A stretch of DNA of 64,000 nt from Thermoleophilaceae bacterium (lineage in GTDB: Bacteria; Actinomycetota; Thermoleophilia; Solirubrobacterales; Thermoleophilaceae), in assembly GCA_030446485.1 (NCBI GenBank), contig JAUJNF010000001.1, positions 477,964-541,963 on the forward strand. The letters are read 5' to 3'. Shown piece after piece: positions 4,205 to 63,815 of this stretch. Numbering within the stretch: the stretch's first letter is position 1; the number at the start of each line of letters is the position of its first letter. Under the pieces are notes generated by a model. The model was not told the origin of the DNA. It ran no database searches and saw only the letters and a program-made list of their open reading frames with translations. Made by a program: the position numbers and the translations under genes.

Positions 4205-4412
4205 CCGTCAGCGCTCTGAATCCGCGTCCCGCCGCCGCGCCAGCAGACGCGCCGCCACCACGCCACCGATCGCTCCGAAGAGGTGCCCCTGCCACGAGAT
4301 CCCCTCCTGGGGCGCGAGACCGGCCCGCCGAGCTCCGCCCCCGAGCGGGCCGAGCACCACGCCGAGCGCAGGCTCGCGGCTGCCGGGGTGGCCGATCCCA
4401 CGGCTGAGGCGA
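4205..4412 (-). pseudogene. Rhomboid protease 3' fragment (duplicated copy)
   Basis: Aligns by eye with 5300-5495, the 3' part of the intact rhomboid gene, sharing for example GATCGCTCCGAAGAGGTGCC and ATCCCCTCCTGGGGC. It encodes the last rhomboid segment (GHLFGAIGG-like) and its C-terminal tail. It is cut abruptly near 4410, where sequence matching the aldehyde dehydrogenase gene begins. This is the expected break of a tandem duplication. Confidence 0.65.
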
Positions 4413-60340: not shown

Positions 60341-61126
60341 TTAGACCGACTGTTGCGAGCCGGTCTCCTGATGGGAGGGCGCCCGCTCGTTGTGATCGGT
60401 CTCGACCTCGATGTCGTCGATGTCCAGCGCGACGAGGGTCGGATGGCGGAGAGATCGGCCGCGGGGCCCGCGTACGTGGACTCGCCGGCGAGCAGCGAAG
60501 ACGAGTCGGTCGATGCGTTGGTGATCGCTGCTGTAGTGGGCGGCGTGTGCCCAGCGGCTGACTGGCTGGGCGGTGTAGTCGTGGCGGCGGATGAGGCCCG
60601 CAGCATCGACGTAGAACGTCTGGCGCGGAGAGTGGGTGTGGAGGCTCGGCGGGAAGCGGACCTCGAGTCGTCGCCATTGCTCACCGGCCTCCGGCCAGGC
60701 GTGTCCCTCGGTGACCGTGACTCCTTCGGAGGTGAGCAGGATGGGCGTGGCGAGGTAGTTCCACCATGCGTATCCGGCGAAGTACGTGGCGTCTAGCGCG
60801 TCCCAGCGGAGGTTGCGACGCACGCTGCTCAGGCCGTTGAAGGCGGCGCGAGCGTTGTGTCGGCTCTCGATGAGTCTGCCACCGAGGGTCTCGATCCGGA
60901 CGTCGCCTCGATCGAACACCGCGCGATGGCCGGCTTGCGGGAAGCCGTCAATGACCGCGTGCTGGTGCGCTGGCTGAACCCGCACTGTCCCGTTGGCCAT
61001 GCGGTTCCCCGGGAATCGCGAGCGCAGCAGCCCGCTGAAGGTGCCGCGGGCAGTGATCGCGGTGACGTCACGCCACGATTCAAGGCCGCCGTGGGCGGCG
61101 AGGGCCTCATCGAGAAGCGCGCTCAC
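60341..61126 (-). CDS. Hypothetical protein, 261 aa
   Basis: MSALLDEALAAHGGLESWRDVTAITARGTFSGLL is the start of a protein predicted to be beta-rich. FPGNRMANGTVRVQPAHQHAVIDG and LRWDALDATYFAGYAWWNYLATPILL are conserved-looking blocks. No signal peptide is visible. The ATG overlaps the HxlR stop (ATGA), so it is translated with that regulator. Function not known; context suggests a substrate-binding or carrier role. Confidence 0.7.
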   Translation of the reverse strand: MSALLDEALAAHGGLESWRDVTAITARGTFSGLLRSRFPGNRMANGTVRVQPAHQHAVIDGFPQAGHRAVFDRGDVRIETLGGRLIESRHNARAAFNGLSSVRRNLRWDALDATYFAGYAWWNYLATPILLTSEGVTVTEGHAWPEAGEQWRRLEVRFPPSLHTHSPRQTFYVDAAGLIRRHDYTAQPVSRWAHAAHYSSDHQRIDRLVFAARRRVHVRGPRGRSLRHPTLVALDIDDIEVETDHNERAPSHQETGSQQSV

Positions 61127-61752
61127 GCGGGCGTATCCGCGAAGACTGCGCTGAGGACGCCCGGGTCACCTTGGACGCGGGCGACGGGTAGAGCTTGCTC
61201 GAGGGTGAGCGCGCCTGCGGCGAGGCCGAGGACGATCTCTGGCGGTGCGGTCAGGACCGTGTCGGGGCGCTGGTCGGGTTCGGCGGTGACGTGGGGGCCG
61301 TCCTTGTCGATCCGCAGGGTCACGAAGAGTCCGGGGAGGTCGATCCCGACCTCAGCCGGACGTCGCGCTGTCCGCCTGTGAAGCAACGCGGGGAGCGCGA
61401 CGGCCAGCCAGCGCGGCGAGAAGGTGTCAGGGCCTGGGCCGCTGATCATCAGCGGGGTGCTCCAGCGGACGAGCGACTCCACAGGCTCTCGCAGCTGAGC
61501 GCCCCAGGGGGTCAGGGCGTAGACGACACCTCCCGGCTCGCCCAATCGCCGCTCGATCACACCGGAGGCCTCCAGGCTGCGCAGCCGGTCGGCCAGCAGA
61601 TTGGTCGCTATCCCGTCGAGCGTCGCCTTGAGTTCGCTGTAGCGCAGCGGGCCGAGCAGCAACTCGCGAACGATGAGCAGGCTCCAGCGATCGCCGATCG
61701 TGTCCAACGAGCGCGCAAGCCCGCAGTACTGCCCGTAAGAACGAGACGCCAT
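61123..61752 (-). CDS. HxlR family transcriptional regulator
   Basis: The 209-residue protein has SYGQYCGLARSLDTIGDRWSLLIVRELLLGPLRYSELKATLDGIATNLLADRLRSLEASGVIERR, the winged-helix HxlR signature. An SCP2-like C-terminal domain (LFVTLRIDKDGPHVTAEPDQ...GLAAGALTLEQALPVARVQGD) follows. It is divergent from the SnoaL/hydrolase genes with a 74-base gap that must hold both promoters, so it is the likely regulator of both sides. Confidence 0.85.
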   Translation of the reverse strand: MASRSYGQYCGLARSLDTIGDRWSLLIVRELLLGPLRYSELKATLDGIATNLLADRLRSLEASGVIERRLGEPGGVVYALTPWGAQLREPVESLVRWSTPLMISGPGPDTFSPRWLAVALPALLHRRTARRPAEVGIDLPGLFVTLRIDKDGPHVTAEPDQRPDTVLTAPPEIVLGLAAGALTLEQALPVARVQGDPGVLSAVFADTPA

Positions 61753-61826: not shown

Positions 61827-62342
61827 ATGTCCGTCACCGTTCCCGCCGCTCCTTCCTTCTCGCCCGTCTCAGCCGCGATCGCGACCTATCGCGCCGCCGG
61901 TGAACGCGGTGACGCCGATGCCATCAGCGCGCTGCTAGCGCCTGACGTGGCGCTGCACTCGCCGCTCACCGCGCGCGTGCGCTTCGCGGGCAGGGACGAG
62001 GTCACAGCCATGCACCGCGACATCTTCGCCGTGCTCGAGGAGCTTGAGACCAGCGAACCGCTGGCCCTTGACGACACGCGATCGTTCACGTTTCGTGCGC
62101 GCGTGCGCGGCGTGGAGCTCAACGCCATGGTCCTCGCGGAGTTCAACGAGGACGGGCAGATCGCTGACCTGACGATCTTCGGCCGGCCGCTCCCGGCCGT
62201 CGCGACGCTGTTCGCCGCGCTCCCCCCGCGCGTATCGGCCAGGCGCCGCGGACGAATGACGGGCGCGCTCGTCGCACTGGTCGCCCGACCGATCGCGTTC
62301 GTCGTGCGCACCGCCGACCGCCTGGCGCCGCGGTTCCTGTAG
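61827..62342 (+). CDS. SnoaL-like/NTF2-fold protein
   Basis: A 171-residue protein: AAIATYRAAGERGDADAISALLAPDVALHSPLTARVRFAGRDEVTAMHRDIFAVLEELETSEPLA. This is the cone-shaped NTF2 fold of SnoaL/ketosteroid-isomerase types. The C-terminal end is Arg-rich with a hydrophobic stretch. AAAGG lies before the ATG at 61827. The hydrolase gene follows 5 bases later, so the genes are coupled. Confidence 0.78.
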   Translation: MSVTVPAAPSFSPVSAAIATYRAAGERGDADAISALLAPDVALHSPLTARVRFAGRDEVTAMHRDIFAVLEELETSEPLALDDTRSFTFRARVRGVELNAMVLAEFNEDGQIADLTIFGRPLPAVATLFAALPPRVSARRRGRMTGALVALVARPIAFVVRTADRLAPRFL

Positions 62343-62347
62343 TCGTC

Positions 62348-63244
62348 GTGACTGACGCGAGCAGGCCCGCCTGGGTCGACGACGAGCTGTTCCCTTTCAA
62401 GAGCCGCTTCGCAGAGCTGGACGGCAACGTCGTGCACTACGTCGACGAGGGCTCGGGGCCGATCCTGCTGATGCTGCACGGCAATCCGGTCTGGTCCTTC
62501 GTGTACCGCGAGGTGATCGCCGCCCTGCGAAACCGGTTCCGGTGCATCGCCCTGGACTTTCCGGGGTTCGGCCTGTCCACCGGCGCCTCCGGCTATCGGT
62601 ACCTGGCCCAGGACCACGCCGACCTGCTCGTGTCCTTCCTCGACCACCTGGACCTGTCTCAACTAACCCTGGTCGGCCACAACTGGGGCGGCCCGTTCGG
62701 CCTGTACGCCGCCCAGCAACGGCCGGAGAAGTTCGAACGCCTCATCCTGGCTAACACCTGGGCATGGCCGCTGAACGGCGACCTGACCAGCGAAGTGTTC
62801 TCCCGCGGCATGGGGGGACCGGTCGGACGCGCGCTGATCAGGCAGTTCAACCCGCTCGTCAACTACTTCATCCCCTCAGCGCACAAGCGCCGGAAGCTAT
62901 CCGAGGCCGAGAAGGCGCACTATCGCGAGGCAATGCCCACGCCAGGACGTCGCCACGCCGGCGCTGTCCTTCCCGGCGAACTCGTCGGCGCTCGCGAGTT
63001 CTTCACCAATCTCGCCGACCAGCTCAGCACAGTCGAGAACTTGCCGACGCTGATCCTCTGGGCCGACGCGGATCCGATCTTCAACGACAAGTACCGTGAG
63101 CGCTGCGAAGCGACCTTCCCCAACCACACCACGACAGTGCTCCACGGAGTCGGCCACTTCCTGCAATCCGACGCACCAGCGGAGTTCAGCCAAGCCATCG
63201 AGACGTGGTGGGCCGGACTGGCCGGTGATGGCGGCCCGACCTGA
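62348..63244 (+). CDS. Haloalkane dehalogenase-like alpha/beta hydrolase with Asn nucleophile position
   Basis: The 298-residue protein has the family's LMLHGNPVWSFVYR oxyanion/halide loop, LDFPGFGLST and a nucleophile elbow VGHNWGGPFG. It also has an acid in WADADPIF and the catalytic His in GVGHFLQSDAP. Active dehalogenases have Asp in HDWGG. Here residue 112 is Asn (AAC at 62681), while His270 and Asp242 are kept. It may be inactive, a different hydrolase, or mature by deamidation. GTG start, directly after the SnoaL-like gene. Confidence 0.85.
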   Translation: MTDASRPAWVDDELFPFKSRFAELDGNVVHYVDEGSGPILLMLHGNPVWSFVYREVIAALRNRFRCIALDFPGFGLSTGASGYRYLAQDHADLLVSFLDHLDLSQLTLVGHNWGGPFGLYAAQQRPEKFERLILANTWAWPLNGDLTSEVFSRGMGGPVGRALIRQFNPLVNYFIPSAHKRRKLSEAEKAHYREAMPTPGRRHAGAVLPGELVGAREFFTNLADQLSTVENLPTLILWADADPIFNDKYRERCEATFPNHTTTVLHGVGHFLQSDAPAEFSQAIETWWAGLAGDGGPT

Positions 63245-63261
63245 ACAGGCCTCCCCCCGCC

Positions 63262-63360
63262 CACCACCGTCGTCATCGGAGGCGCCGGCCACTTCGCGTA
63301 GTCCGACGCCCCAGGCGCGTTCGCGGCAGCGATCCGCGACTGGCCGCCTTCAGAGGCCAC
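63262..63360 (+). pseudogene. Second, decayed dehalogenase-like 3' tail
   Basis: TVVIGGAGHFA-stop-SDAPGAFAAAIRDW mirrors the intact gene's TTTVLHGVGHFLQSDAPAEFSQAIETWW. An in-frame TAG is inside the motif, and nothing of the body is present, so it is a 3'-end remnant copied or left next to the intact gene. Confidence 0.6.
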
Positions 63361-63815
63361 GACGGCCTCAGCTTCCGGAACGAATTTACTTCGGGATCTG
63401 GCGCCACGAACATCGCGTCGAGATCGCTCGGCGGCGGGGCTGCGACCAACAGAGTGCTGGGCGGGAGTCGGGAGGTTGTGCGCCCGTCCGGATGCGCGAT
63501 GAAAGGAAACCTGGGCTGGTTCTGCGAGCTTCCGGCCGGAACGATGAGTCCGCTTGCCAGCTGCACCATCTTTGGGAGATCCGGTGTTCCATCTCGGTCC
63601 GCCATTCAGTCAGATTTGGCCCACGAGGCCGACAGACGCTGGTCGGTGCTCGGGGAGTTGCGTGTCCGCGATCGTGAACACTTCCGCTTTGGACAAGCCC
63701 GGCGCCGCATCGACCACGACTTTGGCCGCTGCGGAGTCCTCAGCGTCCTGACTCTCGATCCGACGATGGTCAGCCGCGGTACCGATCCAAACTACGACGG
63801 CGAAGGGGAACATCA
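63361..63815. other. No intact gene
   Basis: The ORFs on both strands are short and inconsistent. A minus-strand frame (VFTIADTQLPEHRPASVGLVGQI and MADRDGTPDLPKMVQLASG) may hold a frameshifted small protein, but I cannot support a family. Confidence 0.4.

What the first reader, a model, noticed from the sequence alone, without database searches (positions are those of the whole stretch)
62348..63244. Dehalogenase-like enzyme with Asn instead of the nucleophilic Asp
VGHNWGG has Asn112 (AAC at 62681) where haloalkane dehalogenases have Asp. The His, acid and the HGNP halide loop are kept. A loss, change, or masked activity is possible. It is coupled to an SnoaL-like protein and faces an HxlR regulator.
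Basis: partly seen in the sequence, partly recalled or inferred. Interest (0 to 1): 0.55.

Follow-up and report, generated by a model that had tools for sequence, protein, structure and literature searches.

The report
Dehalogenase-like clade without its nucleophile
This gene belongs to a small, mobile group of dehalogenase-like bacterial proteins that have all lost the one residue that should attack the substrate (it is now Asn, Ser or Gly) yet keep the rest of the active site, so they are probably maintained for some job other than classical dehalogenation.

Summary
In detail: window 62348-63244 (+) encodes a 298-residue alpha/beta-hydrolase closest to subfamily III haloalkane dehalogenases (DhmeA), with Asn112 (AAC, 62681-62683) at the nucleophile position and Asn46, Trp113, Asp242 and His270 kept. 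It is not a base error. Fifteen intact members of one clade (69-100% identical; 100/100 support) carry N (10), S (2) or G (3) there and never D, while all 51 nearest relatives outside the clade carry D. The clade is under ordinary purifying selection (median dN/dS 0.19; canonical relatives 0.20), sits beside a conserved divergent HxlR regulator (13/15), and is patchily spread, also on Rhodococcus plasmids. In the whole protein only residues 45 and 112 switch together: Gly45+Asn112, or Ser45+Ser/Gly112. Glycine members show that residue 112 need not be a nucleophile. Best reading (inferred): a dehalogenase-derived protein using the conserved His-Asp pair as general base, or only binding a ligand, without a covalent intermediate. 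Self-deamidation to Asp remains possible for the Asn members only. A sister clade of 30 shows the mirror image: Asp kept, catalytic His lost. The activity is untested. This is a new variant of a known kind.

The parts
62348..63244 (+). HLD-III-like alpha/beta-hydrolase, 298 aa, GTG start
   Evidence: Pfam Abhydrolase_1 3e-32; PDB best DhmeA 8ooh 3e-62; AF2 pLDDT 83.4, Foldseek best 8ooh TM 0.84/0.89
62681..62683 (+). codon 112, AAC = Asn at the nucleophile elbow (Asp in haloalkane dehalogenases)
   Evidence: model has strand 106-112 then helix 114-124
62480..62482 (+). codon 45, GGC = Gly in HGNP; the only other residue that switches with residue 112 across the clade
62483..62485 (+). codon 46, Asn of HGNP (halide-binding position)
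   Evidence: invariant in 15/15 clade members
62684..62686 (+). codon 113, Trp (second halide-binding position)
   Evidence: invariant in 15/15 clade members
63071..63073 (+). codon 242, Asp, catalytic acid position
   Evidence: 14/15 clade members; Asn in L079
63155..63157 (+). codon 270, His, catalytic base position
   Evidence: invariant in 15/15 clade members
61827..62342 (+). SnoaL-like (NTF2-fold) protein, 171 aa, ends 5 bases before the hydrolase start codon
   Evidence: Pfam SnoaL_2 3.4e-9; PDB 3mso 3e-9; relatives in L036, L112, L114, L117
61123..61752 (-). HxlR-family regulator, divergent
   Evidence: Pfam HxlR 1.3e-18; divergent partner in 13/15 clade members, 27/28 and 16/21 of sister groups, 0/7 outgroup
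60341..61126 (-). uncharacterised 261-aa protein overlapping the end of hxlR; relatives beside other clade members
   Evidence: no Pfam or NCBIfam match; relatives in 8 other clade loci
63251..63361 (+). broken C-terminal relic of a second, His-bearing hydrolase (stop at 63299-63301)
   Evidence: tblastn 3.4e-9 to a canonical member, L023, in a small database

Best explanation
Shown: this is a member of a monophyletic, selectively maintained offshoot of the HLD-III-like alpha/beta-hydrolases in which the attacking Asp was replaced (Asn in most, Ser or Gly in some) while the His-Asp pair, the Trp and the Asn of the pocket stayed. Inferred: the protein no longer forms the covalent alkyl-enzyme. 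It most likely still binds a small ligand in the old pocket and acts on it through His270/Asp242 as a general base (water, proton or C-C chemistry), in the way that the cofactor-free dioxygenase HOD works without its nucleophile. Residues 45 and 112 together then shape and hydrogen-bond the pocket (Gly45 with Asn112, or Ser45 with a small residue 112). Expression is presumably set by the divergent HxlR regulator.
For: No intact clade member has Asp at 112: N 10, S 2, G 3. The clade is monophyletic, 100/100, nested within Asp-bearing relatives. Three members have Gly, one of them 85% identical to the window protein, which cannot be a nucleophile. His270, Trp113 and Asn46 are invariant in 15/15 and Asp242 in 14/15. 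dN/dS median is 0.19 against 0.20 in six canonical relatives. Of 298 positions only 45 and 112 split perfectly together, and one origin of the Ser45 set is rejected at p-AU 0.016 (protein) and 0.037 (DNA). The fold and elbow are intact in the model. Precedent for a dispensable nucleophile with a His-Asp base, including natural Ser-to-Ala forms, is in PMC10548524.
Against: No substrate or activity is known. Conserved His and Asp could be kept for ligand binding or folding alone. One member (L079) has Asn at the acid position. The Asn members might still become Asp after translation. The AU test is modest, the group was named after the pattern was seen, and the fork order inside the clade is poorly resolved.
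Confidence: 0.45

Rival explanations
1. Pseudoenzyme: the pocket only binds a ligand (sensor, carrier or partner of the HxlR and SnoaL proteins) with no chemistry.
For: Residue 112 varies among N, S and G; the tight link to a transcriptional regulator fits a sensing role; a sister clade has lost the catalytic His instead.
Against: His270 is invariant in 15/15 while the sister clade shows how freely it drifts once unused; Asp242 is nearly invariant.
Confidence: 0.27
2. Masked dehalogenase: Asn112 deamidates to Asp in the active site, giving a working HLD-III enzyme after synthesis.
For: An engineered DhlA Asp124-to-Asn mutant was activated by hydrolytic deamidation (Pries et al. 1995, title seen in the references of PMC3005927); an Asn-Trp context and an intact His, acid and halide pocket are present here.
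Against: Close relatives with Gly or Ser cannot do this; Asn is fixed in ten divergent members although one base change would restore Asp, which is odd if Asp were the working residue.
Confidence: 0.13
3. Covalent catalysis with another nucleophile: Ser112 (a G-x-S-x-G elbow) or Ser45 in the Ser45 members, and Asn112 itself in the Asn members.
For: GHSWGG matches the classical serine elbow; Ser45 appears exactly when residue 112 is small; Asn acting as a nucleophile in a dehalogenase is reported (Ichiyama et al. 2000, title seen in the references of PMC4899344).
Against: It needs up to three different nucleophiles in proteins that are 70-87% identical; Gly112 members leave only Ser45, whose reach to the substrate was not measured.
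Confidence: 0.12
4. Decay: an inactive gene on its way out.
For: The relative L036 carries a 2-base insertion directly before codon 112, so its frame is broken; a relic of another hydrolase lies just downstream in the window.
Against: Fifteen intact members with dN/dS about 0.2, conserved neighbours and plasmid carriage.
Confidence: 0.03

Closest known systems
DhmeA, Haloferax mediterranei, subfamily III haloalkane dehalogenase-like enzyme (8ooh, 8ckp)
   Same: Fold, cap, halide-binding Asn and Trp, His base and Asp acid after strand 7; about 35% identity
   Different: DhmeA has nucleophile Asp129 (PMC10503415); here Asn112
NCBIfam NF002873 (PRK03204) haloalkane dehalogenase
   Same: Best NCBIfam match, full length, 2e-69
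   Different: 234 bits against a cut-off of 466, so not an equivalog
OleB beta-lactone decarboxylase (HLD-III relative)
   Same: Shows that HLD-III members can do non-dehalogenase chemistry (PMC10503415)
   Different: No direct comparison was made, and ole genes were not searched for around the window gene
HOD-type cofactor-free dioxygenases
   Same: alpha/beta-hydrolases whose nucleophile is dispensable while the His-Asp pair acts as base (PMC10548524)
   Different: Separate lineage; no evidence of oxygenation here

Membership tests
Haloalkane dehalogenase, subfamily III | alpha/beta-hydrolase fold with helical cap | tested here: met
   AF2 pLDDT 83.4; Foldseek best 8ooh, TM 0.84/0.89
Haloalkane dehalogenase, subfamily III | nucleophilic Asp after strand 5 | tested here: not met
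   Asn112; N/S/G in 15/15 clade members
Haloalkane dehalogenase, subfamily III | halide-binding Asn and Trp | tested here: met
   Asn46 and Trp113, invariant
Haloalkane dehalogenase, subfamily III | His base and Asp acid | tested here: met
   His270 15/15, Asp242 14/15
Haloalkane dehalogenase, subfamily III | dehalogenase activity | not testable with these tools
   needs an assay
NCBIfam NF002873 haloalkane dehalogenase | score over the curated cut-off | tested here: not met
   234.1 against 466 bits
Serine alpha/beta-hydrolase | Ser at the elbow (GxSxG) | tested here: not met
   Asn in the window protein; Ser only in L071/L009 and L077
HOD-like nucleophile-independent enzyme | catalysis by the His-Asp pair without a nucleophile | not testable with these tools
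   residues present; activity unknown

The most novel reading that the evidence does not exclude
A natural enzyme series in which one dehalogenase lineage lost its nucleophile and rebuilt the site through a paired switch (Gly45+Asn112 or Ser45+Ser/Gly112) to run a new, non-covalent or Ser45-based reaction, while a sister lineage beside related HxlR regulators kept the nucleophile and lost the His, like a natural HaloTag.
Probability: 0.2. Interest if true: 0.75.

Novelty: new variant of a known kind. Interest (0 to 1): 0.52.

Why it matters
The nucleophile is the defining residue of haloalkane dehalogenases. A conserved, mobile clade that replaced it with three different residues, next to a sister clade that lost the base instead, gives natural material to test how much of this active site each step needs and how the fold moves to new chemistry. 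It also warns that automatic 'haloalkane dehalogenase' labels on these genes are unsafe.

Tried and rejected
Base error at 62681: rejected, AAC recurs in ten genomes or plasmids. Viral origin: the one viral-contig scan found no relative. The structure of the 261-aa neighbour gave pLDDT 46 and was not used. No model coordinates were available, so the 45-112 distance could not be measured. Paper searches for natural Asn, Ser or Gly forms, His-less dehalogenases, deamidation, and HxlR-linked hydrolases found no report of such natural forms in the held CC-licensed library; that library lacks most subscription papers. More members were sought in 1,767 searched genomes (some counted more than once); the clade is rare. 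In many of those genomes only the top few candidates were scored, so absence there is not proven.

Full report
OBSERVATION. The ORF at 62348-63244 (+) encodes 298 residues with VGHNWGG; residue 112 is Asn, codon AAC at 62681-62683. Upstream, a SnoaL-like gene (61827-62342) ends 5 bases before the start codon, and an HxlR gene (61123-61752, minus strand) diverges from it. The finding is real as described.

WHAT THE PROTEIN IS. Pfam places it in Abhydrolase_1 (3e-32). The best NCBIfam model is the haloalkane dehalogenase NF002873, 2e-69 but only 234 bits against a cut-off of 466. By sequence the nearest solved structure is DhmeA (8ooh, 3e-62). An AlphaFold2 model (pLDDT 83.4) has the elbow intact, with a strand at 106-112 and a helix at 114-124, and Foldseek ranks DhmeA first (TM 0.84/0.89). 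DhmeA is a subfamily III haloalkane dehalogenase-like enzyme with pentad N63, W130, D129, D258, H286; this subfamily has low dehalogenase activity and includes the beta-lactone decarboxylase OleB (PMC10503415). Here the matching residues are Asn46, Trp113, Asn112 (for Asp), Asp242 and His270.

THE CLADE. Residue 112 is N in 10, S in 2 and G in 3; all N codons are AAC, all S codons AGC and all G codons GGC. In the nearest 51 relatives outside the clade (about 52-61% identity) it is D in every case. The tree, built without the trait columns, makes the 15 one clade with 100/100 support, nested inside Asp-bearing proteins. So the Asp was lost once in this sample, and the position then moved among N, S and G. 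GAC-AAC-AGC-GGC is a chain of single base changes (sequence fact; the direction is inferred).

SELECTION AND COUPLING. Median pairwise dN/dS is 0.19 in the clade and 0.20 in six canonical relatives, so these are working genes. Asn46, Trp113 and His270 are invariant in 15/15 and Asp242 in 14/15. Over all 298 positions only 45 and 112 split the clade perfectly: Gly45 with Asn112 (10) or Ser45 with Ser112 or Gly112 (5). A single origin of the Ser45 set is rejected at p-AU 0.016 on protein and 0.037 on DNA. That suggests the paired switch happened more than once, but the test is modest, the group was named after the pattern was seen, and fork order in the clade is poorly resolved. From general knowledge of the fold, residue 45 lies in the oxyanion/halide loop facing the elbow; the distance was not measured.

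NEIGHBOURS AND SPREAD. A divergent HxlR gene lies near the hydrolase in 13/15 clade members, 27/28 members of the His-less sister clade, 16/21 canonical relatives and 0/7 outgroup proteins, and HxlR and hydrolase distances correlate (Mantel r 0.63, 0 of 2000 permutations as high). The 261-aa neighbour has relatives in 8 other clade loci; the SnoaL gene in 3 other intact clade members plus the broken relative L036. The clade is rare: of 199 genomes of the window's class only two have a match at 1e-90 or better, the window genome itself and one with an Asp-bearing, His-less sister-clade protein. Plasmid carriage and the scatter over distant actinobacterial lineages suggest horizontal transfer (inference). 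The window genome also has a 40%-identical relative with GHDWGG at C15:210771-211589, and several clade-bearing genomes hold a second relative at 51-55% identity, so in those genomes the clade gene is an extra copy and not the only one.

MECHANISM. Gly members exclude any mechanism common to the clade that needs a nucleophile at 112. The invariance of His270 argues that the pocket still does something with it; the sister clade shows that the His drifts to T, L, D, I or A when not needed. The closest working precedent is HOD, where the His-Asp pair is the base, the nucleophile is not essential and natural Ser-to-Ala forms exist (PMC10548524). I therefore favour non-covalent general-base catalysis (0.45) over pure ligand binding (0.27), Asn deamidation to Asp (0.13), another nucleophile (0.12) and decay (0.03). 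The deamidation precedent is Pries et al. 1995 (listed in PMC3005927) and the Asn-nucleophile precedent is Ichiyama et al. 2000 (listed in PMC4899344); I saw only their titles here.

MEMBERSHIP AND NOVELTY. It has the fold, halide residues, base and acid of HLD-III but fails the defining nucleophile test, so it should be called HLD-III-like and not a dehalogenase. No description of natural N/S/G clades or of the His-less clade was found in the searched library, which lacks most subscription papers. I rate it a new variant of a known kind, interest 0.52: a clean, testable evolutionary series with unknown chemistry.

Noticed in passing
30 proteins, e.g. L012:3989-4906, L080:1483-2379, L069:4001-4876: Sister clade that keeps Asp, Asn and Trp in 30/30 but has lost the catalytic His (T 20, L 7, D, I, A one each), monophyletic 100/99, 27/28 beside a divergent HxlR gene: resembles a natural HaloTag.
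   Followed up: partly
window 63251-63361 (+): Relic of the C-terminus of a second, His-bearing HLD-like gene with an in-frame stop at 63299-63301, starting 6 bases after the hydrolase stop codon; suggests duplication or replacement at this locus.
   Followed up: partly
L036 around 4334-4336 (same contig as L039): Uncultured Solirubrobacterales relative whose frame is broken by a 2-base insertion directly before codon 112; the downstream frame reads GAT there. Pseudogene or assembly fault.
   Followed up: partly
window 60341-61126 (-): Uncharacterised 261-aa protein family with no Pfam or NCBIfam match; 54-63% identical relatives beside other clade members.
   Followed up: partly
L067, L068, L105, L106, L107: His44 of HGNP, invariant in canonical relatives, is Thr or Ser in five Asn112 members.
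   Followed up: no
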